This document shows, one piece after another, positions 27,188-56,244 of a stretch of DNA of 64,000 bases. Position 1 is the first letter of the stretch. Every line of letters begins with the position of its first letter. The notes below the pieces were generated by a model. That model made no database searches. It saw only the letters and a program-made list of their open reading frames with translations, and was not told where the DNA came from. Made by a program: the position numbers and the translations under genes. The stretch is from Pseudomonas tohonis (lineage in GTDB: Bacteria; Pseudomonadota; Gammaproteobacteria; Pseudomonadales; Pseudomonadaceae), in NCBI RefSeq assembly GCF_012767755.2, contig NZ_AP023189.1, positions 3,598,001-3,662,000 on the forward strand, read 5' to 3'.

Positions 27188-28108
27188 CTAGTGCTGGTAG
27201 CGCTTGCGGTACTCGCCGGGAGAAACGCCGAAGCGCGCCTTGAAGGCGGTGGAGAAATAGCTGGAATCCGAGAAGCCCCAGGAATAGCCGAGGGCGGAAA
27301 GCTTCTGCTCGGCGCCACCCAGGCGCAGGGACTCGGCGCAGAAGTCCAGGCGGCGGTTCTTGATGTACTGCGCCACCACCAGCCCCTTGCGCGAGAACAT
27401 GCGGTACAGGCCACGCACCGAAACCCCCACCTCGCGTGCCAGCAGCTCCGGGCAGAGCTCCTCGGAACGGATGTGCGCATCGATGAAGTCCAGGGTCTTG
27501 CGGAACACCCGCTCATGCACGTCGCCCTCGGCATCGACGGCGCTGATGGCCGGGCGCAGCAGGCTGACCACCGCGTCCAGGGTCGCCTCGCTCTCGTGCT
27601 GGCTGAGGCACTCGTGCTGGCTGGCCTCCAGCACCAGGCGATGTGTGAGCAGCGCGATCGGCGAGGTGGCGGCGATCTTCTGCGCGCAACGCACGCTGCC
27701 GTAGCGCAGGTTCTGCTCCACCAGGTGGCGCGGCAGGATCAACGACAGCTGCCGGGAATTGGCGCCGTAGGTGAAGTCGCTGGGCAGCGAGGAGTCGATC
27801 AGAGTGATGTCGCCGGGCGCCAGGCGCACGCGGTTGCCGCCCTGTTCCATGTTCGCCTCGCCCTGCAGCTGGAAGGCGGCGAAGAAATGCCGGCTGTCGC
27901 TCTGCGCCACCTCGTGCTCGGTGCGATAGAGCCGGGCCTGGGCGACATCGACGAAGCTCAGCTTGATGGCGCCGGACTTGTATTCGCGGACCGCCCCGGA
28001 GAATTCATCCCCGAGGGTCTTGGCGCAGAAGCGTCCGCATACCTGGTTGATCCGCTGCAGCCATTCGTCGAAGCGGTCGGTTCTCAGTGCACGTGCAGTC
28101 ATGGCCAT
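27188..28108 (-). CDS. feaR: AraC-family regulator of aromatic amine catabolism FeaR
   Basis: Regulator of 306 residues closely resembling E. coli FeaR over its whole length; shared stretches include WLxxINQVCG, APGDITLIDSS in the cupin-like N-terminal domain and LYRMFSRKGLVVAQYIKNRR in the helix-turn-helix region. E. coli FeaR activates the tynA and feaB genes for 2-phenylethylamine oxidation. Here it sits next to the paa cluster and about 23 kb from aauBEDA, the likely amine oxidation genes. The start at 28108 has AGAGG upstream. FeaR-like sites are proposed upstream of the porin and aauB. No feaB-type aldehyde dehydrogenase is adjacent. Confidence 0.9.
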   Translation of the reverse strand: MAMTARALRTDRFDEWLQRINQVCGRFCAKTLGDEFSGAVREYKSGAIKLSFVDVAQARLYRTEHEVAQSDSRHFFAAFQLQGEANMEQGGNRVRLAPGDITLIDSSLPSDFTYGANSRQLSLILPRHLVEQNLRYGSVRCAQKIAATSPIALLTHRLVLEASQHECLSQHESEATLDAVVSLLRPAISAVDAEGDVHERVFRKTLDFIDAHIRSEELCPELLAREVGVSVRGLYRMFSRKGLVVAQYIKNRRLDFCAESLRLGGAEQKLSALGYSWGFSDSSYFSTAFKARFGVSPGEYRKRYQH

Positions 28109-28259: not shown

Positions 28260-29183
28260 CTATTTAAGCCCGCCGAATCGCCGATAGAAACTTTCGCCGA
28301 CATCCGGCAGGGGTCCGTCTGCGGTTTCCAGTGCGCCATTGAGCCATTCCTCGGCCTTGGCTTGCACCAGGCGATAGATATTGCGGCACAACTGGCGCGC
28401 CGCACGCCCTTCCCAGTCGCCCGGCAACAGCTCGTCGGGCAGCTGCGGGTCGCGCAGCAGCAATTTGCGGTACTCGTGTATCAGCAGGGTTCGTGCCAGG
28501 AAGCAGTCCTGCGGCTGCAGCGCCTCCTGTTCGCGCAGCGCCTGCCACAGCGGGCGGAACAGCTGGATGAATTCGCTGTAGTGCGCCGCCAGCTCGTCGA
28601 TGTTCCAGCTCTCGCGAACCTGCATGCGCAGGGCCCTGGAGGCGAGCACATCCTGGGCGGTGGTCTCGAAGACGATGGTTTCCTCCAGGGCCTCGAGGTC
28701 CTGCAGGGTGGCGTTCACATCCACGCGGTCGCAGCGCGGGCAGGCCAGCACGATGGGGGAAATCGCACCAAAACCTTGCCATTCCAGTTCCTCGCGCACC
28801 TGTTTGCGCTTCTCCTGGGGCAGCTGCGAGAGCATCACCAGGCACCAAGAACCGTCCCAGGCCGGCAGGCTGGAGCTGTACACCCGCTTGAAGGCCTTCT
28901 CGAAACGCCGCCGCCCGGTGCCGGTGAGGCTGTAGTAGCTGCGCCGGCCGACCTTCTCGGCGGTGAGCCAGCCTTCCTTGGTCAGGCGGAAGATCGAGGT
29001 GCGGATCAGGCGCTCGTTGACGCCGATCGGCTCCAGCAGCTGGATCAGGCTGCCCAGCCACACGGTGCCGCCATGGGGCTCGATGGCATCGCCGTAGAGG
29101 GTGATGATCAGGGAGCTGGCGCGCAGCGGCGTCTGCTCCTGGAAACGGGTGATGAGGTGCTGCAGGGGAGCGAGGGACGTCAT
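28260..29183 (-). CDS. paaX: Phenylacetic acid degradation operon repressor PaaX
   Basis: GntR-like repressor of 307 residues, the usual PaaX length. It releases DNA on binding phenylacetyl-CoA. The N-terminal winged helix includes SLIITLYGDAIEPHGGTVWLG and RTSIFRLTKEGWL; a middle stretch contains the CPRC motif. I chose the ATG at 29183 (MTSLAPLQHL), matching PaaX N-termini; a longer in-frame start would overlap paaY. It lies 67 bases downstream of paaY on the same strand. Candidate operators are the TTGTATC sites at 29951, 30148 and 38753. Confidence 0.94.
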   Translation of the reverse strand: MTSLAPLQHLITRFQEQTPLRASSLIITLYGDAIEPHGGTVWLGSLIQLLEPIGVNERLIRTSIFRLTKEGWLTAEKVGRRSYYSLTGTGRRRFEKAFKRVYSSSLPAWDGSWCLVMLSQLPQEKRKQVREELEWQGFGAISPIVLACPRCDRVDVNATLQDLEALEETIVFETTAQDVLASRALRMQVRESWNIDELAAHYSEFIQLFRPLWQALREQEALQPQDCFLARTLLIHEYRKLLLRDPQLPDELLPGDWEGRAARQLCRNIYRLVQAKAEEWLNGALETADGPLPDVGESFYRRFGGLK

Positions 29184-29250
29184 GGGCGAACCGGGCGCTG
29201 GAAAGTTGCCGAATATACCCGTCGCATCGGCGCGCTGACCACAGCCGCAC

Positions 29251-29847
29251 TCACGCCGACTCCCCCTTCGGACGCAGTCCATCGACACGGTTGCGCGGGC
29301 GACCGGCCTCCACCGCCGCCAGCGGCTCGCAGGCCACCAGGCTGGCCATGCAGCGCCGCGCCAGCACCTGGTACTCCCGGGTGCCGCGCTGCTTCCAGGC
29401 CACCTCCTCGTCGCCGAGGCGGCGCTTCACCTCGGCCGGGGCACCCATGACCAGGGACTGCTCCGGGCACTCGAAGCGCGCCTTGACGAAGGCCGCGGCG
29501 GAGACGAAGGAGCGCGCACCGATATGCGCGCCATCCATCACCACCGCATTCATGCCCACCAGGGCGTCCTCGCCGATGCGGCAGCCGTGCAGCACCGCGC
29601 CGTGGCCGATATGGCCGTTGCGCTCCACCACCGTGTCGCTTTCCGGGAAGCCGTGCATCACGCAGGTGTCCTGGAGGTTGGCGCCCTCCTCCAGGACGAT
29701 CCGCCCGAAGTCGCCGCGCAGGCTGGCCAGCGGGCCCACATAGCAGTTGGGGCCGATGATCACGTCGCCGATCAGCACCGCCGATGGGTGCACGTAGGCG
29801 CTCGGGTCCACCACCGGAACCAGGCCGTCGAGGCTGTAGCAGGTCAT
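29251..29847 (-). CDS. paaY: Phenylacetic acid degradation thioesterase PaaY
   Basis: Left-handed beta-helix protein of 198 residues of the gamma-carbonic-anhydrase fold. PaaY is a thioesterase that hydrolyses dead-end CoA esters such as 2-hydroxycyclohepta-1,4,6-triene-1-formyl-CoA and helps relieve PaaX-type repression. The hexapeptide repeats and the motif [13 protein letters not shown] are clear. The ATG at 29847 ([14 protein letters not shown]) matches the E. coli PaaY N-terminus; the ribosome site in front is weak. It is divergent from paaF and shares the regulatory region with it. Confidence 0.93.
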
Positions 29848-46934: not shown

Positions 46935-46971
46935 TGGCATGCACAGCCAAGCGGTTGGCAAGCAGGCACAA
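46935..46971 (+). promoter_or_regulatory. Two FeaR-like direct repeats upstream of the porin gene
   Basis: TGGCA-N8-CAA occurs at 46935-46950 and again at 46956-46971, a spacing of 21 bases or two helical turns. The same motif and spacing occur upstream of aauB. E. coli FeaR is recalled to use TGNCA-N8-AAA direct repeats. The porin starts 92 bases downstream. Confidence 0.6.
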
Positions 46972-47063
46972 GGCTCGCGCGAGGGCGATACGTACCATCG
47001 CCGCATGGGCCGATCCGCGTAGAGCCCCCCACGCCAACACCAACAACAACGGGAATCCCACGC

Positions 47064-48401
47064 ATGCAAACTCTCACCCGCGTCACGCCGCTGTTCCGCC
47101 TTTCGACCCTGGCCCTGCTGGTGGCCTGCGCCACCCAGGCCGGGGCCTACGAGCTCTACGCCGACGAGGACACCCACCTCAACGCCGACCTGGAAGCCGT
47201 GTTCGGCGTCTTCCACAGCCAGAAGAACTACGCCACCACCGGCACCAAGGACAAAGGCTCGTCCAGCTGGCGCGAGGGCTACATCAAGTACGGCATCAGC
47301 GGCGACCAGGGCCTGGGCGGCGCCGGCACCGGCTACGGCGCGTTCAACCTGCTCAGCTCCGCCACCTGGGGCGATGGCGACGCGGCGGGCTTCACCGACG
47401 GCGACGAGCGCACCACCAAGATCGAGGACGCCTACCTCGGCTGGCGCTCCGGCAGCCTGTTCGAGGCCCTGGGCGAGGACGGCATCGACGTCTCCTTCGG
47501 CCGCCAGAACATCTCGGTGGGCGACGGCTTCCTGATCAACGGCGACGCGCTGAACCTGGGCAACGGCCCGGCCGATGGCGAGTTCGACCGTGGCGGCGCC
47601 TACTGGCTGGCGGCGCGCAAGGCCTTCGACCAGACCGCCGTGCTGCGCATCGGCGGCAAGGACGGCTGGCGCGGCGACCTGATGTGGCTGAAGTCCGACA
47701 ACCGCTCCCAGGCCAGGCCCGAGCTGTTCGTCGGCACCCTGGAGCACGTGGCCGAGCAAGGCACCGTCGGCCTGACCTGGATCGACATCCGCGACATCGA
47801 TGAAGAGTACGCCTCCCCCATCCAGCTCGACCGCGACGGCATGAAGACCTACAGCCTGCGCGCCCAGGGCAACGCCGGCGTGGAGAACCTGTTCCTCTCC
47901 GGCGAATACGCCTGGCAGGACAAGAAGACCGCCGACAACGAGGACGCCTGGTACCTGGAAGCCGGCTGGACCTTCGCCGACCTGCCCTGGAGCCCCAGCG
48001 TCAGCTACCGCTACAGCCGCTTCTCCGAAGCCTTCGACCCGCTGTTCTTCGGCTTCAACCGGGGCTACGGCACCTGGTTCCAGGGCGAGGTCGCGGCCAA
48101 CTACGCCGGCCCCTTCAACAGCAACACCCGCGTCCAGCACGTGGCGCTGAAGGCCACCCCGCTGGAGAACCTGAGCATCGGCGCGCTGTATTTCGACTTC
48201 GACACCATCGACCGCAACCTGGGCAACTTCGACGGCCGCGAGCTGGACCTCTACGCCGAGTGGGCGGTCAACGACAACCTGGTGATCATGCCGGTGGTGG
48301 GCCTGTTCGAGCCCAGCCGCAGCGCCGACAACGGCGGCACCCAGATCGGCAGCAACGACCGCAACCTCTACACCCAGCTGGTCTTCGCCAGCCACTTCTG
48401 A
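47064..48401 (+). CDS. Outer-membrane beta-barrel porin, substrate unknown
   Basis: A 445-residue protein with a signal peptide ending near AQAGA, alternating aromatic/polar strands through its length and a C-terminal Phe, all typical of an outer-membrane barrel. It does not resemble OprD-type PaaM/PhaK channels; similarity in style to alginate-export-type barrels is possible but weak. FeaR-like repeats upstream and the chemoreceptor 45 bases downstream suggest a channel for aromatic amines or related substrates. Function inferred from context only. Confidence 0.8.
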   Translation: MQTLTRVTPLFRLSTLALLVACATQAGAYELYADEDTHLNADLEAVFGVFHSQKNYATTGTKDKGSSSWREGYIKYGISGDQGLGGAGTGYGAFNLLSSATWGDGDAAGFTDGDERTTKIEDAYLGWRSGSLFEALGEDGIDVSFGRQNISVGDGFLINGDALNLGNGPADGEFDRGGAYWLAARKAFDQTAVLRIGGKDGWRGDLMWLKSDNRSQARPELFVGTLEHVAEQGTVGLTWIDIRDIDEEYASPIQLDRDGMKTYSLRAQGNAGVENLFLSGEYAWQDKKTADNEDAWYLEAGWTFADLPWSPSVSYRYSRFSEAFDPLFFGFNRGYGTWFQGEVAANYAGPFNSNTRVQHVALKATPLENLSIGALYFDFDTIDRNLGNFDGRELDLYAEWAVNDNLVIMPVVGLFEPSRSADNGGTQIGSNDRNLYTQLVFASHF

Positions 48402-48446
48402 GCCCCTGGCGGCGGGCCTCCCGCCGCCCTTCCCCCCGAGCACGCC

Positions 48447-50591
48447 ATGCGTACACCTTCCCTGAGCATCCAGAGCCGCATCACCCTGCTCGCCAGCGCC
48501 TGCCTGATCCTCGTGGTGGCGCTGCTGGTGGGGCTTTCGCTGTACCAGACCCGGCTCAGCACCGAACGCGTCAAGGCCTCCAGCAGCCGCATGCTGGCCA
48601 ACGCTGCCGAAGCCCACATGCAGGCCCAGGCCCGCGTGCAGGCGCTGCAGATCCAGCGCACCTTCCTGCAGACCTACGAATACGGCCAGGGCCTGTCGCG
48701 CTTTGTCCTCTACCTGCGGGCGCGGGCGACGGCCGGCGAGCTGACCGCCGCCGAACTGCGCCAGCGCGTGGCCGAACAGATGCGCAGCGCCGTCCTCGCC
48801 AAGCCCGACCTGCTCGGGCTTTTCGTCATCTTCGAGCGCGACGCGCTGGACGGCGCCGACAGCCAGTTCGTCGGCCAGGACCAGGCCTTCGGCAACGACG
48901 CCGGGCGCTTCTCGCTGTACTGGGTGCAAGGCAAGCCCGGCGAGCTGCAACCGGTGGTCGGCCCGGAGCAGATCCTCACCGACACCTCGCCCGGCCCCAG
49001 CGGCAGCCCCTACAACGCTTTCTACACCTGCCCCCGGGACAGCCGCCGCGCCTGCCTGCTGGAACCTTATTTCGACGACGCCTCCGGTACCCGTCGGCTG
49101 GTCACCAGCGTCGCCTTCCCGCTGATCGAGAACGGCAAGGTGATCGCCGTGGTCGGCCTCGACATCAGCCTCGACGCCCTGCAGCGCAGCGCCCTGGACG
49201 GCAGCGCCCAGCTGTTCGACGGCGCCGGCCAGCTGGGCATCCTCAGCACCGGTGGCGTGGTCGCCGGCTACAGCGCCGATGCCAACGCCCTGGGCAAGCG
49301 CCTCGACCAGGCCCTGCCCGAGGGCGCCGACGCCGTGCTCGGCAGCCTGCGCGAGGCCAAGGCGCGCAGCCTGGTGGACGAGCAGCGCATCCGTGTCCTG
49401 GAGCCGCTGGAGCCCATCCCCGGCGCCGCGCCCTGGGGTGTGCTGGCGACGGTGCCGCAACGCGTGCTGCTGGCCCCGGCCGAAACCCTGCAGAAGGAGC
49501 TGGACGCCGAGCGCCTGGCCAGCTCCGCCCTGGAGTTCGGCCTGGGCAGCGGCGCCGCCCTGCTCGGCGTGCTGCTGATCTGGTTCGCCGCCTTCCGCAT
49601 CACCCGCCCGCTGCAAGGCCTGACGCGCATGCTCGAAGCCATCGCCCAGGGCGAAGGCGACCTCACCGGTCGCCTGGCCGTGCACTCCCGCGACGAGTTG
49701 GGCAAGCTGGCCGCCGCCTTCAACCGATTCGTCGAACGCATCCACGCCTCCATGGGCGAGGTGGCCTCGGCCACGGGGCGGGTCAACGAGGTCGCCCAAC
49801 GGGTGCTGGCCGCCTCCAACGCCTCGCTGCGCAACTCCGACGAGCAGGCCCAGCGCACCAACAGCGTGGCTGCCGCGATCAACGAGCTGGGTGCCGCTGC
49901 CCAGGAGATCGCCCGCAACGCCGCCGACGCCTCGCACCAGGCCTCCGATGCCCGCGAACTGGCCGAGGAAGGCAAGCAGGTGGTCGGCAAGACCCTCACC
50001 GCCATGCATGAGCTGTCCAGCAAGATCAGCGCCTCCAGCGCACAGATCGAGACCCTCGCCGGCAAGACGGTCAACATCGGCCAGATCCTCGACGTGATCA
50101 AAGGCATCTCCGAGCAGACCAACCTGCTCGCGCTCAACGCCGCCATCGAAGCGGCCCGCGCCGGTGAGGCCGGCCGTGGCTTCGCCGTGGTCGCTGACGA
50201 GGTGCGCAACCTCGCCCACCGCACCCAGGTGTCGGCCCAGGAGATCCACCAGATGATCGAGGAACTGCAGGTCGGCTCCCGCGAGGCGGTCGGCACCATG
50301 AGCGAGAGCCAGCGCTACAGCCAGCAAAGCGTCGAGATCGCCAACCTGGCCGGCGAACGCCTCTCCAGCGTCACCCAGCGCATCGGCGAGATCGACGGCA
50401 TGAACCAGTCCGTCGCCACCGCCACCGAGGAACAGACCTCCGTGGTCGAAGCGCTGAACATGGACATCACCGAGATCAACACCCTCAACCAGGAAGGCGT
50501 GGAAAACCTCCAGGCCACCCTGCGCGCCTGCGCCGACCTGGAGCAACAGGCCGAACGGCTCAAGCACCTGGTGGGCAGCTTCCGCATCTGA
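48447..50591 (+). CDS. Methyl-accepting chemotaxis protein with dCache-like sensor domain
   Basis: Chemoreceptor of 714 residues: transmembrane helix (about 13-32), a periplasmic double-Cache-like ligand domain (33-355), second helix ([11 protein letters not shown]), HAMP domain and the cytoplasmic signalling tip with the conserved [19 protein letters not shown] hairpin. The ligand domain has the unusual Cys pair [17 protein letters not shown]. It follows the porin by 45 bases with only a T-less hairpin between, so both may be cotranscribed and FeaR-controlled; an aromatic amine ligand is then a reasonable guess. Its signalling module is almost identical in DNA to the receptor at the right edge. 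Confidence 0.92.
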
Positions 50592-50609
50592 CCGGCAGCC
50601 CCGTGCCCC

Positions 50610-50825
50610 CTGGGTTGAGTGGATCCCCGCGTTCGCGAGGATGACGAGGGGCGGAAAGGTTCGCGTTACCCCGTCACCCCGTGGGAGCGAATTCATTCGC
50701 GATGCGGCGCCCCAGGCAACGCCGTGCCCGCCGGCTTGAGTGGATCCCCGCGTTCGCGAGGATGACGAGGGGAGCACAACCATCCCCACACACCGTCACC
50801 CCCGCGCACGCGGGGGCCCACTGGA
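50610..50825. repeat. REP-like repeats between the chemoreceptor and aauB
   Basis: Two copies of GAGTGGATCCCCGCGTTCGC with the continuation GAGGATGACGAGGG lie at about 50618 and 50739, the palindrome GGAGCGAATTCATTCGC at 50684, and CACCCCCGCGCACGCGGGGG near 50798. No gene is visible in the 419-base gap. Confidence 0.8.
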
Positions 50826-50861
50826 CAACCGGCACTACACTTTCACCTGTACGCAACCCCC

Positions 50862-50937
50862 TGGCACGCCGGCACAACGGCTGGCACAGGCAGACAACGG
50901 GTTGGCAGACAGAGCAATTTCCCTGGCACAGCCACAA
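50862..50937 (+). promoter_or_regulatory. Array of four FeaR-like direct repeats upstream of aauB
   Basis: TGGCA begins at 50862, 50882, 50903 and 50924, spaced 20, 21 and 21 bases. The first two units are exact TGGCA-N8-CAA; the third is TGGCA-N8-AAT, and the fourth has CAA two bases early. The helical phasing suggests one protein array on a single DNA face. aauB starts 74 bases after the last unit. Confidence 0.65.
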
Positions 50938-51010
50938 GGCAGACTGGTACTGCAGAAATCTGCCAACGTACCCGCGATCCGCCAGACCAATAATTCAGGG
51001 AGCCCCCCTA

Positions 51011-52156
51011 ATGCGAATAAACAGGATCCTCGTCCATTCAGCGCTGAGCCTCGGCCTTGCGCTGGCGGGGCTGAACGCCCATGCGGACCTTCCCGCCGAC
51101 ACCATCGGCCAGGTGACCTTGCCCTTCCCGCCCGAACCGCACCGCGCCTACATCGTCGACGTGGAGTTCGAGAACTTCGTCGCCGGCCGCGTGACGGTGG
51201 TGGACCCGGAGAAGAAGAAGATGCTCGGCATGGTCAGCACCGGCTTCGCCGCGCCCTCGACCCTGAGCCGCGACGGCAAGCGCCTGTACACCGCCGACCT
51301 GTTCTATTCGCGCGGCACCCGGGGCACCCGTACCGACGTGCTGACCGCCTGGGACACCTCGACCCTGTCGCCGTCCTGGGAGGTGCTGATCCCCACCAAG
51401 CGCGCCGAGATGCTGACCCAGCGCTACTCACTGGGCACCAGCAGCGACGACCGTTTCGTCTACGTCTACAACTTCACCCCGTCCACCTCGGTGACCGTGG
51501 TCGACACCCAGGCCAAGGCGGTGACCGCCGAGATCGCCATCCCCGGCTGCGTGCTCAACTACCCGGTGGGCAAGCGCGCCTTCGCCTCGCTGTGCGGCGA
51601 CGGCAAGCTGCAGGTGATCACGCTGGACGAGAGCGGCAAGGAAGCCTCGCGCACGCAGACGCCGTTCTTCGACCCCAACGCCGAGAAGCTGGTGGAGCGC
51701 GGCATCGCCGTGGGCGAGCGCTACTACTTCACCACCACCGAGGGCGAGGTGCGCGGGGTGGACTTCTCCGGCGACACGCCGAAGATGCTCGAACCCTGGT
51801 CGCTGACCACCGACGCCGAGCGCAAGGCCGGCTGGGCACCGGGTGGCTGGCAGCTGCTGGCCGTGGCACCGAAGCTCAACCGCCTGTACGTGCTGATGCA
51901 CGACGCCCACGAGCCGATGAAATGGGAAGACCCGAGTCCCTTCGTCTGGGTCTACGACCTGAAGACCGGCAAGAAGGTCGCCACCCTGGAAGCGCCCAAC
52001 CCGATCTGGAGCCTGGCCGCCACCAACGACGACAAGCCATTGCTGCTGGGTACCAACATCACCGGCGGGCTGGAGGTCTTCGACCTGGCCAGCGGCAAGC
52101 ACACCGGCACCATGGAAAAGATCGCCAAAACCCCGATCCAGATCCTCAGCCACTAG
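51011..52156 (+). CDS. aauB: Aromatic amine dehydrogenase large subunit AauB
   Basis: Periplasmic seven-bladed propeller subunit of 381 residues of the MauB/AauB family, with a Sec signal ending near LNAHA. It pairs with the TTQ-bearing small subunit AauA to oxidise primary aromatic amines (2-phenylethylamine, tyramine, tryptamine) to aldehydes and ammonia. The aauB-E-D-A-cytochrome order equals the Alcaligenes faecalis aau cluster as I recall it, which favours AADH over methylamine dehydrogenase. The ATG at 51011 is the one giving a proper signal peptide. Confidence 0.92.
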   Translation: MRINRILVHSALSLGLALAGLNAHADLPADTIGQVTLPFPPEPHRAYIVDVEFENFVAGRVTVVDPEKKKMLGMVSTGFAAPSTLSRDGKRLYTADLFYSRGTRGTRTDVLTAWDTSTLSPSWEVLIPTKRAEMLTQRYSLGTSSDDRFVYVYNFTPSTSVTVVDTQAKAVTAEIAIPGCVLNYPVGKRAFASLCGDGKLQVITLDESGKEASRTQTPFFDPNAEKLVERGIAVGERYYFTTTEGEVRGVDFSGDTPKMLEPWSLTTDAERKAGWAPGGWQLLAVAPKLNRLYVLMHDAHEPMKWEDPSPFVWVYDLKTGKKVATLEAPNPIWSLAATNDDKPLLLGTNITGGLEVFDLASGKHTGTMEKIAKTPIQILSH

Positions 52157-52165
52157 GAGGTCCGC

Positions 52166-52705
52166 ATGTACAGCGACCCGATCTTCATCATCGCCAGCGC
52201 CCTCGCCGTCGCGGTGATCCTGGCCAGCGCCGCGACCCACAAGTTGCGCGCCCCGGCCCGGTTCCGCGACCAGGTGGAGGCCTATCAGCTGCTGCCCAAG
52301 GCGCTGCTCAAGCCCTTCGCCCGGCTGCTGCCGCTGCTGGAGGTGGCCCTGGCCTTCGCCCTGCTGGTGCCCGCCAGCCGCAGCGTCGCCGCGCTCGGTG
52401 CGGCCCTGCTGCTGGCCGCCTACGCCGGCGCCATCGGCCTGAACCTGTGGCGCGGCCGTCGCGACATCGATTGCGGCTGCTCCGGCCCGGACCAGTCCCA
52501 GCCCATCCGCCCGCAGCTGCTGCTGCGCAACGCGGTGCTGGTGGCCCTGGCGCTGGTCGCCACCCTCACCCCCGGCGCCCGCGAACTGGGCGTCTTCGAC
52601 GGCTTCGTGGTGATCGCCGCGGCCGCCGTCGCCCTGCTCATCTATGCCGCGGCCGATGGCCTGCTGGCCAACAGCCCCCGTCTGCTCAAACTCATTGGAA
52701 GGTGA
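52166..52705 (+). CDS. aauE: AADH maturation membrane protein AauE (MauE family)
   Basis: A 179-residue integral membrane protein of the MauE/DoxX-like family with four to five hydrophobic segments and the conserved stretch RRDIDCGCSGP containing a Cys pair. MauE and MauD are needed for transport and disulfide formation of the small subunit. Ribosome site AGGAGG nine bases after the aauB stop; 3 bases before aauD. Confidence 0.9.
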   Translation: MYSDPIFIIASALAVAVILASAATHKLRAPARFRDQVEAYQLLPKALLKPFARLLPLLEVALAFALLVPASRSVAALGAALLLAAYAGAIGLNLWRGRRDIDCGCSGPDQSQPIRPQLLLRNAVLVALALVATLTPGARELGVFDGFVVIAAAAVALLIYAAADGLLANSPRLLKLIGR

Positions 52706-52708
52706 AAT

Positions 52709-53326
52709 ATGGAAGGCCTGATCGTTTCCAACATCCTGCTCTGGTGCCTGCTGCTCGCCCTGGCCTTCGCCGTGATGGGCCTGGTGCGCCAGATCGGCGT
52801 CCTCCACGCACGCCTGGCCCCGGCCGGCGCGCTGATGATGGACAAGGGCGTCGCCGTCGGTGATGCCGCACCCAAGGTGACCGCCGCCGACCGCAACGGC
52901 CGCCCGGTGAACTTCGGCTACGCCGGCGAAAAGGCACAGCTGCTGTTCTTCCTCTCGCCCACCTGCCCCATCTGCAAATCCCTGCTGCCGGCCATCCGTT
53001 CCATCGCCAGGGAACAGGCCGACCGCCTGGAGGTGGTCTACGTCAGCGACGGCGACATGGACGCCCAGGCCGCGCTGATCCGCGAGCACAAGCTCGAAGA
53101 CGTCACCTACGTGGTCGGCCCGGAAGTGGGCATGACCTACCAGATCGGCAAGCTCCCCTACGCCGCGCTGATCGACAAGGCCGGCACCCTGCGTGCCAAG
53201 GGCCTGGTCAACTCCCGCGAGCACCTGGACAGCCTGTTCGAGACCGAACACCTGGGCAGCGCGACCCTGCAGCAGTACCTGCACGGCGGCCATTCCCATG
53301 GCCACTCGCACTCCGCACAACAATAA
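52709..53326 (+). CDS. aauD: Thioredoxin-like AADH maturation protein AauD
   Basis: A membrane-anchored periplasmic thioredoxin-fold protein of 205 residues. One N-terminal helix is followed by the redox motif CPIC (Cys86, Cys89). It is expected to handle the six disulfides of the small subunit. The C-terminus ends in a His-rich tail (HGGHSHGHSHSAQQ) that could bind a metal ion; I do not know this to be a general family feature. Confidence 0.92.
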   Translation: MEGLIVSNILLWCLLLALAFAVMGLVRQIGVLHARLAPAGALMMDKGVAVGDAAPKVTAADRNGRPVNFGYAGEKAQLLFFLSPTCPICKSLLPAIRSIAREQADRLEVVYVSDGDMDAQAALIREHKLEDVTYVVGPEVGMTYQIGKLPYAALIDKAGTLRAKGLVNSREHLDSLFETEHLGSATLQQYLHGGHSHGHSHSAQQ

Positions 53327-53341
53327 GGAAGGGAGACTTCC

Positions 53342-53863
53342 ATGAAACTGCTCGATCTCCTGTTCGAACGCTCCGCCCGGCACGTCGCCGACACCACCTC
53401 CCGGCGCAAGCTGCTGGCCCGCTTCGGCTCGCTGATGGTGGCCGGCGCCGCGCTGCCGGTGCTGCTGCCCATCGACCGCACCGCCAAGGCCCTGGCCGCC
53501 GAGGCGCCCCAGGCCGGCGACCCGGGCGACCCGACCAGCTGCGACTACTGGCGCTACTGCTCCATCGACGGTTTCCTCTGCAGCTGCTGCGGCGGCACCG
53601 TCACCTCCTGCCCGCCGGGCACCGAGGTGTCCCAGGTGACCTGGATCGGTACCTGCCGCAACCCGGCGGACGGCAAGGACTACATCATTTCCTACAACGA
53701 CTGCTGCGGTAAGCACAGCTGCGCCCAGTGCGCCTGTACCCGCAACGACAGCGAGGAGCCGGCCTACCGCCCCTTCAACAACAACGACGTGAACTGGTGC
53801 CTGGCCGCCAAGTCGCACATCTACCACTGCACCATCTCGGTGATCCGCGGCGTGGCGATATGA
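53342..53863 (+). CDS. aauA: Aromatic amine dehydrogenase small subunit AauA (TTQ cofactor)
   Basis: Catalytic small subunit of 173 residues. A twin-arginine signal (TSRRKLLARFGSLMVAGAA) leads to a Cys-rich mature domain. The tryptophan pair that forms tryptophan tryptophylquinone is Trp101 (VTWIGTC) and Trp152 (NWCLAAK); the catalytic Asp is Asp120 (YNDCCG). All three are offset by eight from the A. faecalis AADH numbering as I recall it (109, 160, 128), which supports AADH identity. No mauG-type gene for TTQ maturation is in the window, as in the A. faecalis cluster. Confidence 0.94.
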   Translation: MKLLDLLFERSARHVADTTSRRKLLARFGSLMVAGAALPVLLPIDRTAKALAAEAPQAGDPGDPTSCDYWRYCSIDGFLCSCCGGTVTSCPPGTEVSQVTWIGTCRNPADGKDYIISYNDCCGKHSCAQCACTRNDSEEPAYRPFNNNDVNWCLAAKSHIYHCTISVIRGVAI

Positions 53864-53877
53864 ACGGAGGGGTTGTC

Positions 53878-54399
53878 ATGCGAGCACTGCTGATCGCCGC
53901 GCTGGCCTGCGCCATGGCAGCCCCGCCGGCGTTCGCCCGGGCCATCCCCGACCCGCACCAGCGGGCCGCGCCCGGCAACGAGGCGCAGCAGAAGCCGATC
54001 TCCCAGGCGGGCTACAGCACGCCGGTGAACTACCAGCTGCAATGCGCCGGCTGCCACCTGGGCGACGGCACCGGCTCGAAAGCCAACGACACGCCACGGA
54101 TGAAGGATTTCGTCGGCAACTTCCTCAAGGTCGAGGGCGGCCGCGAGTTCCTCGTGCGCGTGCCGGGCATGTCCCAGTCCGCGCTCAACGACGCGCAGCT
54201 GGCCGACCTGCTCAACTGGCTGATGCGCGAGGACGGCATGGCCGGCAAGAGCATGCCCGCGCGCTACGTGCCCTACAGCGCCGAGGAAGTCACCCGCCTG
54301 CGCAAGGTGAACATGCTCAACCTGCCCGGCACCCGCGCCGAACTGATCGCGCGGATGCGCGAACAGGGCATCCCCATCGAGGACGGCATGGACTATTGA
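53878..54399 (+). CDS. Periplasmic monohaem c-type cytochrome of the aau operon
   Basis: A 173-residue secreted protein with one haem site CAGCH (56-60). It matches the small cytochrome (orf-2) that follows aauA in A. faecalis and may accept electrons from AADH. The ATG at 53878 has GGAGGGG six bases upstream; an earlier ATG at 53860 overlaps the aauA stop but lacks a ribosome site. One haem motif only, so it is not a MauG-type dihaem enzyme. Last gene before a terminator. Confidence 0.88.
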   Translation: MRALLIAALACAMAAPPAFARAIPDPHQRAAPGNEAQQKPISQAGYSTPVNYQLQCAGCHLGDGTGSKANDTPRMKDFVGNFLKVEGGREFLVRVPGMSQSALNDAQLADLLNWLMREDGMAGKSMPARYVPYSAEEVTRLRKVNMLNLPGTRAELIARMREQGIPIEDGMDY

Positions 54400-54418
54400 G
54401 TGCCCCGCTCCACCTTCG

Positions 54419-54444
54419 AGCCCGCCTTCATGGCGGGCTTTTTA
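54419..54444 (+). terminator. Terminator of the aau operon
   Basis: AGCCCGCC / GGCGGGCT with a five-base loop, followed by TTTTA, about 20 bases after the cytochrome stop. Confidence 0.88.
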
Positions 54445-54462
54445 TTGGGCTGCGGTGGCCCA

Positions 54463-54712
54463 TTGTGGGAGCCGATGGAGTGCCTGCTCACTCGCAGCAA
54501 GGTGCCGGCGGGGGGGCTTTCGCGGCTGAAGCCGCTCCCACAGGGAAAGCCCGCAGCGAGGCCGGGCGTCGCGGCGTTGGGCCTCGCTGCGCTCGGCGCC
54601 AACCTACGGCACCGTGCCCGATCGTAGGGTGGATGACGCTCTTTTCATCCACCAGCGGTGTCCCAGGAGACTCCGAGTCGGGGCAGCGGGCGAATGAATT
54701 CGCCCCTACACG
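54463..54712. repeat. Cluster of intergenic palindromes between aau and lysE-type gene
   Basis: Contains a TGTGGGAGC ... GCTCCCACA hairpin (54465-54542), a TTGGGCCTCGCTGCGCTC element (about 54576), a GTAGGGTGGATG ... CATCCACC hairpin (54626-54657) and the GGGCGAATGAATTCGCCCC palindrome (54688-54709). This 315-base gap holds no gene. The combination resembles one unit of the 223-bp array at 9130. Confidence 0.8.
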
Positions 54713-54714
54713 CT

Positions 54715-55314
54715 TCACACCACCAGGCTGAGCCAGGCCGAGGCCAGGAGCAGCAGCGCCATGGCCTGGTTGAAGCGCTTCTGCGCGGTGGCGCTGCGCC
54801 ACAGGCGGGCGCTGCCGAAGCCGAGCAGCGCCCAGGCGCCCATGCAGGGGATGGACACCAGCAGGAACACCAGGGACAGCGTCACCACCCGCGCGGCCTT
54901 GTCGGCGCCCTCCCCGGCGAATACACCGACCACCGCCAGGGCCATCATCCACACCTTGGGGTTGACCAGCTGCAGGCCGATGGCGCCGCCCAGGCCGAGG
55001 CGCGCACCGGGGTCGGCCGGGTCGTCCAGCGAACGCGCCTCGCTGCGGAAGATCTGCCAGGCCAGCCAGCTCAGCCAGGCGATGCCCGCCCAGGCCATGG
55101 CGCGTTGCAACAGCGGGTGGCTGGCCAGCGCCTCGCCCAGGCCCAGCCCCACCAGCAGGACGATGGCCGCAGCGGCGCAGCAGGCGCCGAGGACGATGGG
55201 CAGCGCCGCACCCAGGCCGAAGCGCGAGGCGTTGCTGAGCACCAGGATGTTGGTGGGCCCCGGGGTGATGGAGGCGACGAAGGCGAACAGCAGGAAAGGC
55301 AGCAGCTGTTCCAT
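54715..55314 (-). CDS. LysE/RhtB family exporter
   Basis: A 199-residue inner-membrane protein of the LysE/RhtB superfamily with about six hydrophobic helices and the family sequence SITPGPTNILVLSNASRFG near the start and NPKVWMMALAV in the middle. Such proteins export amino acids or related metabolites. The ATG at 55314 (MEQLLPF) is preferred to one 15 bases upstream. The AraC-type regulator gene lies 93 bases upstream on the same strand and probably controls it. Substrate unknown. Confidence 0.9.
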   Translation of the reverse strand: MEQLLPFLLFAFVASITPGPTNILVLSNASRFGLGAALPIVLGACCAAAAIVLLVGLGLGEALASHPLLQRAMAWAGIAWLSWLAWQIFRSEARSLDDPADPGARLGLGGAIGLQLVNPKVWMMALAVVGVFAGEGADKAARVVTLSLVFLLVSIPCMGAWALLGFGSARLWRSATAQKRFNQAMALLLLASAWLSLVV

Positions 55315-55407
55315 GGTCAGCCCCCGCAATGAGGGTGAAGCGAGAGGGAACGGGACATCGGCGAGGCTCCTGTGAAGACGAGCCCCATGTTCACCGCCGC
55401 GCGCGGC

Positions 55408-56244
55408 TCAGTCTGGAAGCTTTGAGCAGCGCTTGCGGTAGTCCGCCGGGGTCAGCCGGTAGGCGCGGCGGAACCAGCGCCCGAGGTGGCTCTGGTCGGC
55501 GAAGCCGAGGGCGCTGGCGACCTGCGCCGGCGTGTCGCCCCGGGCCAGCAGGGTGCGGGCGCGAGCCAGGCGCAGCTGGATCAGGTAGGCGTGCGGGGCC
55601 AGGCCGAAGGCGGCCTTGAAGGCACGGGTGAGGCGGAAGCGGTCGACGCCGGTGATGCGGGCCAGGTCGTCCAGGCCGATCTCCTCGTCCAGGTGCGCGT
55701 GCAGGTAGTCCCGCGCGCGCAGCGCCACCCGGGGCAGGCGCGGGTCCTGTGGCTGGCACAGGCGCCAGTGCAGGTGCCCGGTCATCTTCGCCAGCAGGTT
55801 GTCGATGGCGGCCTGGCGCAGCATGCGCACCTCCTTGCCGTGCAGGGCGTTGAAGGCCTGCAGGGTGGCATGCGCCAGGGTCGGGTCGTGGGCCAGGGTG
55901 TCGGCGAAGCTCGGCTGGCAGCCGGCCGGGGCGTCCTCGAACAGCGCGTGCATCTCGCGCTCGATCCAGTGCGGGTCGAGGTAGAGCGTGGAATAGGTGA
56001 AGCCTTCCTCGGTGGGCGCGTGGCCGTCATGGATCTCGCCCGGCTCCAGCAGGAACACCTGCCCCGGCGTGCTGACGTTGCGCCGGCGCCGGCAGTTGAA
56101 CTGCTGCACACCCTGTTCGGTGACGCCGACCAGGTAGCTGTCGTGCCAGTGCGGGTCGTAGGCGTGGCCCTGGAAATGGGCGCGGATGGTCTCGATGCCC
56201 GTGTCACCGTCCTGCGCGAGATCGATCCAGTTGCGATGTTCCAA
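55408..56244 (-). CDS. AraC-family transcriptional regulator
   Basis: A 278-residue regulator with an N-terminal cupin domain (HAYDPHWHDSYLVGVTEQGVQQF; EPGEIHDGHAP) and a C-terminal double helix-turn-helix (LARITGVDRFRLTRAFK and VASALGFADQSHLGRWFR). The layout, with a LysE-type gene next to it, is very common in Pseudomonas and suggests control of the exporter. It is an alternative, less likely candidate for binding the repeats upstream of aauB. Confidence 0.9.
   Translation of the reverse strand: MEHRNWIDLAQDGDTGIETIRAHFQGHAYDPHWHDSYLVGVTEQGVQQFNCRRRRNVSTPGQVFLLEPGEIHDGHAPTEEGFTYSTLYLDPHWIEREMHALFEDAPAGCQPSFADTLAHDPTLAHATLQAFNALHGKEVRMLRQAAIDNLLAKMTGHLHWRLCQPQDPRLPRVALRARDYLHAHLDEEIGLDDLARITGVDRFRLTRAFKAAFGLAPHAYLIQLRLARARTLLARGDTPAQVASALGFADQSHLGRWFRRAYRLTPADYRKRCSKLPD

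What the first reader, a model, noticed from the sequence alone, without database searches (positions are those of the whole stretch)
46935..50937. Shared phased operator (TGGCA-N8-CAA every 20-21 bp) upstream of the porin/chemoreceptor pair and aauBEDA
Two exact copies 21 bases apart precede the porin gene and four copies with 20/21/21-base spacing precede aauB. Two promoters 4 kb apart with the same word, the same N8-CAA tail and the same helical phase are unlikely by chance. The word fits the site I recall for E. coli FeaR, and a clear FeaR is encoded at 27188-28108. This would join uptake, taxis and oxidation of aromatic amines in one regulon, and it is the best candidate here for an undescribed system.
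Basis: partly seen in the sequence, partly recalled or inferred. Interest (0 to 1): 0.78.

Follow-up and report, generated by a model that had tools for sequence, protein, structure and literature searches.

The report
FeaR aromatic-amine regulon operator
Paired copies of one short DNA word sit at a fixed distance before genes for taking up, sensing and oxidising aromatic amines, and comparison of related genomes indicates that they are landing sites of the known regulator FeaR, which here seems to switch on the whole pathway including a dedicated smell receptor.

Summary
The repeats are real and not chance. A TGGCA pair 21 bp apart precedes the porin gene; four TGGCA at 20/21/21 precede aauB, of which three are conserved. 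A profile trained only on other genera finds three places in the 6.8-Mb genome at E<=1: aauB, the porin, and a cytochrome c-feaB operon 391 kb from the porin. Of 398 family genomes, 59 have the operator at E<=0.001 and all 59 encode FeaR; none of the 335 without FeaR has it. aauB and FeaR occur in 63 genomes each, 59 shared. A -10-like hexamer usually starts 37 bp after the proximal half-site, as at E. coli feaB. The receptor behind the porin is TlpQ/McpU-like, with primary-amine contacts kept but E170 replaced by V or I in the 19 distinct receptors read. Best explanation: amine-bound FeaR binds tandem TGGCA-N8-(C/A)AA half-sites and activates porin, receptor, aromatic amine dehydrogenase, cytochromes and FeaB together. 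The neighbouring AraC gene is rejected as regulator. Protein-DNA binding is untested. Known regulator, enlarged regulon: a new variant of a known kind.

The parts
46935..46950 (+). distal half-site of the porin operator (TGGCA-N8-CAA)
   Evidence: pair present in 16 of 16 genus porin loci of >=78% identity
46956..46971 (+). proximal half-site of the porin operator
   Evidence: models R1 and R2 both find 46935-46971
46993..46998 (+). putative -10 hexamer TACCAT of the porin promoter, starting 37 bp after the start of the proximal half-site
   Evidence: inference from position, no transcript mapped
47064..48401 (+). outer-membrane porin gene (445 aa; weak Alginate_exp match just under the Pfam cut-off)
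   Evidence: no PDB match at E<=1
48447..50591 (+). chemoreceptor gene (714 aa) with TlpQ/McpU-like amine-binding domain, residues 33-357; V170 in place of Glu
50862..50877 (+). outermost conserved half-site of the aauB operator
   Evidence: three TGGCA at spacing 20/21 in all 17 genus genomes with aauB
50882..50897 (+). distal half-site of the core aauB pair
50903..50918 (+). proximal half-site of the core aauB pair
50924..50939 (+). fourth TGGCA: not conserved (TGGCG in the two closest relatives), probably not a working site
50940..50945 (+). putative -10 hexamer CAGACT of the aauB promoter, starting 37 bp after the start of the proximal half-site
   Evidence: inference from position
51011..52156 (+). 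aauB, aromatic amine dehydrogenase large subunit
   Evidence: TTQ_MADH_Hv 187.6 bits, below the methylamine dehydrogenase equivalog cut-off of 454.45
52166..52705 (+). aauE (MauE)
52709..53326 (+). aauD (MauD)
53342..53863 (+). aauA, TTQ small subunit
53878..54399 (+). small c-type cytochrome gene directly behind aauA (CAGCH motif)
   Evidence: PF00034 20.9 bits, just under the cut-off of 21.3
27188..28108 (-). feaR, AraC-family activator proposed to read the operator
   Evidence: NF007243, 368.9 bits, cut-off 199; 46% identical to E. coli FeaR
28260..29288 (-). paaX, repressor gene directly upstream of feaR on the same strand (start as in the ORF list)
55408..56244 (-). second AraC-family gene, 1 kb behind the aau operon; tested as rival regulator and rejected

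Best explanation
The repeats are the operator of FeaR. A pair of half-sites TGGCA-N8-(C/A)AA, 21 bp (two helical turns) apart, lies with its proximal half next to or over the -35 position, so that an amine-activated FeaR dimer contacts RNA polymerase and switches the promoter on (class II activation, as in other AraC/XylS activators). In this genome three promoters carry it: porin-chemoreceptor, aauBEDA-cytochrome, and a distant cytochrome c-feaB operon. One signal would then induce entry through the outer membrane, taxis to the amine, periplasmic oxidation by the quinone enzyme, electron transfer, and conversion of phenylacetaldehyde to phenylacetate, which the neighbouring paa genes degrade. 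Shown here: the sites, their conservation, spacing, gene targets and co-occurrence with FeaR. Inferred: binding by FeaR, activation, the inducer, the ligand of the receptor and the substrate of the porin.
For: A profile (R2) trained on 29 sites from other genera finds three places at E<=1 in the own genome: aauB 2.5e-5, cytochrome c-feaB 1.3e-4, porin 3.8e-4. Of 398 family genomes 59 have a hit at E<=0.001 and all 59 encode FeaR; 0 of 335 FeaR-lacking genomes do. Of FeaR genomes that gave no training site, 42 of 44 have it, and 25 of 27 outside the own genus. FeaR and aauB: 63 genomes each, 59 shared, Fisher p 1.8e-60. They lie 3-10 kb apart, start to start, in at least 18 genomes; yet in 14 of the 17 genus genomes with both, aauB is on another contig than feaR or at least 75 kb from it, likewise from the porin where there is one, and keeps the sites. 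In 80 named FeaR loci, 49 of 49 hits at E<=0.03 precede cytochrome c (22), feaB (11), aauB (10) or porin (6). -10-like hexamer (A2, T6) at +37: aauB 54 of 57 rows, porin 26 of 27, cytochrome-feaB 7 of 10, tynA 42 of 42. E. coli K-12: tynA has TGGCA twice at 21 bp, feaB TGTCA at 19 and 21 bp with TACACT at exactly +37. E. coli FeaR is 46% identical, DNA-reading helices nearly the same. A paper's introduction says that FeaR regulates the amine oxidase of E. coli and activates feaB (PMC4640556, passage).
Against: No binding or expression data. The genomes are related, so counts are not independent events; R2 was trained on sites from 19 of the FeaR genomes, and held-out genomes can carry the same site letters. 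Four FeaR genomes (G072, G278, G293, G318) have no hit at E<=0.001, though G278 and G318 gave training sites. The profile misses some porin pairs that are there by pattern: none at E<=1 with R2 in G002 and G015. In the 80 named FeaR loci 46 have no hit at E<=0.03; 36 of these carry tynA, whose distal half is mostly [AC]GGCA and which needed a looser pattern that also fits 91 of 8000 random windows. E. coli tynA scores only E 0.2 with R2 and feaB is not found; tynA's -10 sits at +35. Four aauB genomes lack FeaR; the regulator read beside three of these clusters (G235, G056, G275) is only 29% identical to FeaR, and the aauB operator there is a TGGCA/TTGCA variant, so the operator type is not exclusive to FeaR proper. 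The receptor gene does not always follow the porin gene: none found behind it in L056 and L167. The exact pattern also recurs at 22-bp spacing at one unread place in 7 genus relatives. The -10 of aauB (CAGACT) is weak.
Confidence: 0.88

Rival explanations
1. The AraC-family gene behind the aau operon (55408-56244) is the regulator of the repeats.
For: It is an AraC-type protein with ligand-binding and DNA-binding domains close to aau.
Against: At E<=1e-50 only 6 of 18 genus genomes have it, although 17 have aauB and the operator, and beyond the own genome only in G009 does it lie beside aauB (in G008 the contigs end); it had no match in the first 20 larger aau regions fetched; BLAST finds only 29% identity over 133 residues with E. 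coli FeaR.
Confidence: 0.03
2. A different AraC/XylS-type activator that merely travels with aau reads the same kind of site; FeaR is a bystander that regulates only feaB.
For: Genomes hold many AraC-like proteins (50-75 first-look candidates per genus genome).
Against: The operator tracks FeaR over 398 genomes (59 of 63 with, 0 of 335 without); the same site precedes feaB beside feaR and aauB; E. coli FeaR targets have a like layout.
Confidence: 0.06
3. Chance or a repeated mobile element: the words are fragments of intergenic repeats or composition noise.
For: The 16-mer alone is only mildly enriched in the window, and a 58-bp duplicated intergenic element lies upstream of the aauB sites.
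Against: The duplicated element (50594-50651, 50715-50772) does not contain the sites; the sites are kept while the surroundings differ; exact pattern 3 against 0 in the control.
Confidence: 0.01
4. The sites are FeaR operators but act by repression, or only tune another promoter system.
For: aauB has three conserved half-sites in the own genus, more than one dimer needs, and a GGCAGA...TCTGCC inverted repeat overlaps the aauB -10 in 14 of 17 genus genomes.
Against: The proximal half lies upstream of the proposed -10 at the usual place of an activator in the four promoter classes read; FeaR is described as an activator in E. coli (annotation; PMC4640556 passage).
Confidence: 0.03

Closest known systems
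E. coli FeaR regulon (tynA, feaB)
   Same: FeaR orthologue (46% identity, reading helices nearly identical), tandem TGKCA half-sites with 21-bp spacing, -10 at about the same distance (feaB +37, tynA +35), a FeaB homologue (54%) under the operator.
   Different: Here the amine-oxidising enzyme is a quinone dehydrogenase (AauAB) rather than copper oxidase TynA, and the operator also precedes a porin-chemoreceptor pair and cytochrome genes; three conserved half-sites at aauB.
P. aeruginosa TlpQ / P. putida McpU chemoreceptors
   Same: Sensor domain matches PDB 6fu4 and 6f9g over residues 34/38-356; contacts to the primary amine Y208, D210, D239 (and Y158) kept (residues from passages of PMC6234866).
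   Different: E170, which in TlpQ contacts the ring of histamine, is V or I in the 19 distinct receptors read; the gene lies behind a porin gene in an amine-catabolic regulon.
AraC/XylS class II activator sites (for example XylS, RhaS)
   Same: Direct repeats about 21 bp apart with the proximal copy at the -35 (recalled, from no call).
   Different: Different half-site word.

Membership tests
FeaR (NF007243) | Full-length match above the curated cut-off | tested here: met
   368.9 bits against 199, residues 5-304
FeaR (NF007243) | DNA-reading helices as in E. coli FeaR | tested here: met
   SVRxLYRMF identical and the second helix nearly unchanged in the alignment; helix limits recalled
FeaR regulon | Tandem TGNCA-N8-AAA-type sites (consensus recalled from Zeng and Spiro 2013; paper not held) | tested here: met
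   TGGCA-N8-(C/A)AA pairs at 21 bp; A at columns 15 and 36 invariant in 34 aligned sites
FeaR regulon | Phenylacetaldehyde dehydrogenase FeaB among the targets | tested here: met
   In the own genome the operator starts 140 bp before a cytochrome c gene followed by a FeaB homologue, 54% identical to E. coli FeaB
FeaR regulon | FeaR protein binds the sites | not testable with these tools
   needs protein and DNA
FeaR regulon | Induction by tyramine or phenylethylamine needs FeaR | not testable with these tools
   needs expression data
Aromatic amine dehydrogenase (AauAB) | TTQ large and small subunits with MauE and MauD between them | tested here: met
   substrate not testable here
Methylamine dehydrogenase (MauAB) | Scores above the NCBIfam cut-offs for both subunits | tested here: not met
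   187.6 of 454.45 and 173.1 of 196.85 bits
TlpQ/McpU amine chemoreceptors | Y208, D210, D239 contacts to the primary amine | tested here: met
   all three in the window protein
TlpQ/McpU amine chemoreceptors | Acid at 170 for the ligand's far end | tested here: not met
   V170; E at this column in 6fu4 and 6f9g, counted by hand in the alignment

The most novel reading that the evidence does not exclude
FeaR runs a sense-and-eat regulon: the same aromatic-amine signal that induces oxidation also induces a dedicated porin and a chemoreceptor whose binding pocket has been retuned (E170 to V/I) from polyamines and histamine to aromatic monoamines such as phenylethylamine and tyramine, and the operator has been kept while the oxidising enzyme was swapped between copper oxidase and quinone dehydrogenase.
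Probability: 0.55. Interest if true: 0.65.

Novelty: new variant of a known kind. Interest (0 to 1): 0.55.

Why it matters
It turns a regulator known for two E. coli promoters into a pathway-wide regulon in pseudomonads, predicts targets genome by genome from sequence alone, suggests a ligand class for an unstudied group of chemoreceptors and a substrate class for an unstudied porin family, and shows an operator type standing before two unrelated amine-oxidising enzymes. All of this is testable with reporters, one deletion and one ligand-binding assay.

Tried and rejected
Local AraC gene (55408-56244) as regulator: rejected on distribution. The fourth aauB copy and the TGGTA at 50945 as further sites: rejected, the first not conserved, the second overlapping the proposed -10. 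Autoregulation of feaR: no TG[GT]CA pair other than the four at porin and aauB anywhere in the window. ORFs 54042-54731 and 54761-55375, which I first took for the last genes of the aau operon: the first overlaps the cytochrome gene in another frame; over the second the opposite strand encodes a LysE-type transporter (54715-55329). Porin structure by sequence: nothing in PDB at E<=1. A plasmid search with the chemoreceptor gave only matches under 60% identity. Literature: nine of ten searches used. FeaR is a homonym of 'fear', so most listings were noise; in the rows shown I saw no title on FeaR in Pseudomonas, which is weak evidence. Zeng and Spiro 2013 is not held.

The 7 of 65 aauB rows without an exact TG[GT]CA pair: L090, L094, L099, L100 (from the four FeaR-lacking genomes) and L147 (second copy of G278) have a TGGCA/[TG]TGCA variant at 21 bp, with a FeaR-like regulator read nearby at 4 of these 5; L154 has TGACA in the middle; L150, a 59% aauB, has none. 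L180 stands twice in the 65 rows, giving 57 of 64 distinct promoters; rows with the same last 120 bases had been merged.

Rows dropped or repeated elsewhere: porin set has 27 rows, L064 and L190 being the same promoter and L058 not picked up by that script; receptor read-out gave 20 matches from 23 stretches (none in L056, L058, L184), L064/L190 again the same gene, so 19 distinct.
Full report
What is there. Two promoters in the window carry phased TGGCA repeats: 46935/46956 before a porin gene (47064), and 50862/50882/50903/50924 before aauB (51011). TG[GT]CA pairs at 20-22 bp occur nowhere else in the 64-kb window. In the 6.83-Mb genome the exact form TGGCA-N8-CAA-N4-6-TGGCA occurs three times, all at these two promoters, with none for the reversed control pattern. 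The single word is only mildly enriched, so it is the phasing that carries the information. The N8-CAA tail is exact in 4 of the 6 copies.

Conservation. In the genus as held (18 genomes) 17 have aauB, and all 17 have TGGCA three times at spacing 20/21, starting 144-149 bases before the start codon. The fourth copy of the window is TGGCG in the two closest relatives and absent at that place elsewhere. All 16 porin loci of >=78% identity have the pair 21 bp apart; four paralogues of 58-63% do not. G011 has no such porin. In 14 of 17 genomes aauB is on another contig than feaR or at least 75 kb from it, and where the porin is present, on another contig or at least 89 kb from that; the exceptions are the own genome and its two closest relatives. 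So the shared word is not a by-product of a local duplication. In the wider family 58 of 65 aauB rows (57 of 64 distinct promoters) have a pair, each of them including one at exactly 21 bp, and 12 of 14 further porin loci do (L141 and L176 do not).

Genome-wide targets. Sequence-only profiles were built from tandem sites: R1 from 34 sites including the window, R2 from 29 sites without any of the own genus. The search scores the best 150 first-look candidates per genome. With R2 the own genome gives three matches at E<=1: aauB, porin, and G000:C1:3253810-3253846. The third starts 140 bp before a small cytochrome c gene followed by an aldehyde dehydrogenase 54% identical to E. coli FeaB. In 13 other genus genomes a match lies directly downstream of feaR on its strand; of the three read, two precede a cytochrome c gene (L227, L228; in L227 an aldehyde dehydrogenase follows) and one a FeaB-like gene directly (L229). 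G004, without FeaR and aauB, has no match better than 0.265 (R1) or 0.567 (R2). R2 finds no porin match at E<=1 in G002 and G015 although the pair is there by pattern. E-values from these models are rough by the tool's own statement.

Link to FeaR. The window encodes FeaR at 27188-28108. Over 398 family genomes, aauB (E<=1e-80) and FeaR (E<=1e-60) occur in 63 each and together in 59. The operator (R2, E<=0.001) occurs in 59 genomes, all with FeaR; the FeaR genomes without it are G072, G278, G293, G318; none of 335 FeaR-lacking genomes has it. Sites from 19 FeaR genomes had gone into R2; of the 44 others 42 have the operator, and of the 27 of these outside the own genus 25. Related genomes can share the same site letters, so these are not independent trials. 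The family-wide scan used stricter filters that lose weak matches. By hand from the lists, FeaR is encoded 3-10 kb from an aauB gene, start to start, in at least 18 genomes, and next to the same porin family in two genomes where no aauB was found (G318, G342; L185, L186).

Named loci. The 80 best FeaR loci of the species collection (80 kept of 289) were searched with R2 together with the E. coli stretch: 56 matches at E<=1, of which the 49 at E<=0.03 were mapped to the nearest downstream match among 17 query proteins. All 49 got one: cytochrome c (22), feaB (11), aauB (10), porin (6), in 34 of 80 loci. The seven weaker matches (E 0.058-0.36) were not mapped by script; by coordinates two lie before aauB (L303, L311) and two before tynA (L274 and E. 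coli), three are unassigned. Of the 46 loci without a match at E<=0.03, 36 carry a TynA-type copper amine oxidase gene. The exact TG[GT]CA pair occurs in only 3 of 42 tynA upstream stretches; all 42 fit a looser form, NGGC(A/G)-N9-A-N6-TGGC(A/G)-N9-A, against 91 of 8000 random windows of the same loci. Thus the same operator type appears to stand before either kind of amine-oxidising enzyme. Eighteen further matches of the family scan, picked by eye because their coordinates did not explain them, were read (not all such matches): eight precede porin, seven of these with the chemoreceptor gene found behind it; seven precede cytochrome c-feaB; three others precede an amino-acid-permease-like gene (L316, by its letters only), an unidentified 236-aa ORF (L322) and nothing recognisable (L327).

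Promoter layout. Aligned on the proximal half-site, a hexamer with A2 and T6 starts exactly 37 bp downstream in 54 of 57 aauB rows, 26 of 27 porin rows, 7 of 10 cytochrome-feaB rows and 42 of 42 tynA promoters; of offsets 15-59 this was the best in each of the three sets. In E. coli K-12 feaB has TGTCA at 19 and 21 bp with TACACT at +37, and tynA has TGGCA twice at 21 bp with GATAAT at +35. With the hexamer at -12 to -7 the proximal half starts at about -49, the usual place of a class II activator. That is an inference from position. Several genus porins of the family scan have the hexamer one base earlier or later (hexamers such as TTAGCA at +37).

Chemoreceptor. The sensor domain of the gene behind the porin aligns over its whole length with PDB chains of TlpQ (6fu4) and McpU (6f9g) (that 6fu4 is TlpQ is from knowledge, the table says probable chemotaxis transducer). 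By passages of PMC6234866, TlpQ holds the primary amine of histamine with Y208, D210 and D239, and D210 and E170 contact the ring nitrogens. The window protein keeps the first three and has V170. Of 20 matches from 23 stretches (19 distinct receptors, the window's included) residue 170 is V in 18 and I in 2, and the amine contacts are kept wherever covered (one stretch ends before 239). By passages of PMC10653921, TlpQ itself binds phenylethylamine (KD 410 uM) and tyramine (100 uM). One set of amine contacts and a greasy far end suggest aromatic monoamines; this is inference. No receptor gene was found behind the porin in L056 and L167.

Rivals. The AraC gene behind aau is in only 6 of 18 genus genomes and has no match in 20 other aau regions. 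Four aauB-bearing genomes lack FeaR; in three of them, and at a second aau copy in G278, a 29%-identical FeaR-like regulator lies near, and the aauB operator is a TGGCA/[TG]TGCA variant. This shows that a sister regulator can take over, and it is the main reason not to call FeaR proven.

Novelty. FeaR and its E. coli targets are known (PMC4640556 passage; consensus recalled). The extension to a quinone amine dehydrogenase, a porin, a retuned chemoreceptor and cytochromes was not seen in the titles and abstracts listed; only PMC4640556, PMC10653921, PMC10104139 and PMC6234866 were looked at, in passages. The library lacks most subscription journals. I rate it a new variant of a known kind.

Noticed in passing
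L224 5340, also L225, L226, L230, L231: A fourth operator group: CGGCA/TGGCA pair with a TCTAAT-like -10 about 37 bp on, before a PotF/PotD-like periplasmic binding protein gene; matches in eight genus relatives, read in five; no such match in the own genome.
   Followed up: partly
L140, L142, L143, L147: aauB clusters with a divergent porin gene and a FeaR-like regulator (29% identical to FeaR), with slightly different tandem sites before both genes.
   Followed up: partly
G002, G005, G006, G011, G012, G013, G016 (for example G011:C1:2985426-2985452): A recurrent TGGCA-N8-CAA...TGGCA match at 22-bp spacing (TGGCAGGAAAAGGCAAACCCGCTGGCA-like) in seven genus relatives; gene not looked up; R2 gives it E 0.21 in G011.
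   Followed up: no
window 50594-50651 and 50715-50772: Two copies (91% alike) of a 58-bp intergenic element between the chemoreceptor gene and the aauB operator.
   Followed up: no
window 50938-50964: Inverted repeat GGCAGA...TCTGCC overlapping the proposed aauB -10, kept in 14 of 17 genus genomes; could be a hairpin at the transcript start or a second operator.
   Followed up: no
L316 1238; L322 1491: Operator matches before an amino-acid-permease-like gene (behind a chemoreceptor gene) and before an unidentified 236-aa ORF near a relative (75%) of the window's second AraC gene.
   Followed up: no
L068, L069, L070: Paralogous porins (60-63%) have a single TGGCA-N8-(A/C)AA-like word upstream instead of a pair; the genome of L068 (G004) lacks FeaR.
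   Followed up: no
window 54715-55329 (-): LysE-type transporter gene beside the second AraC gene, opposite to a spurious ORF; a relative of the pair is seen in L322.
   Followed up: no
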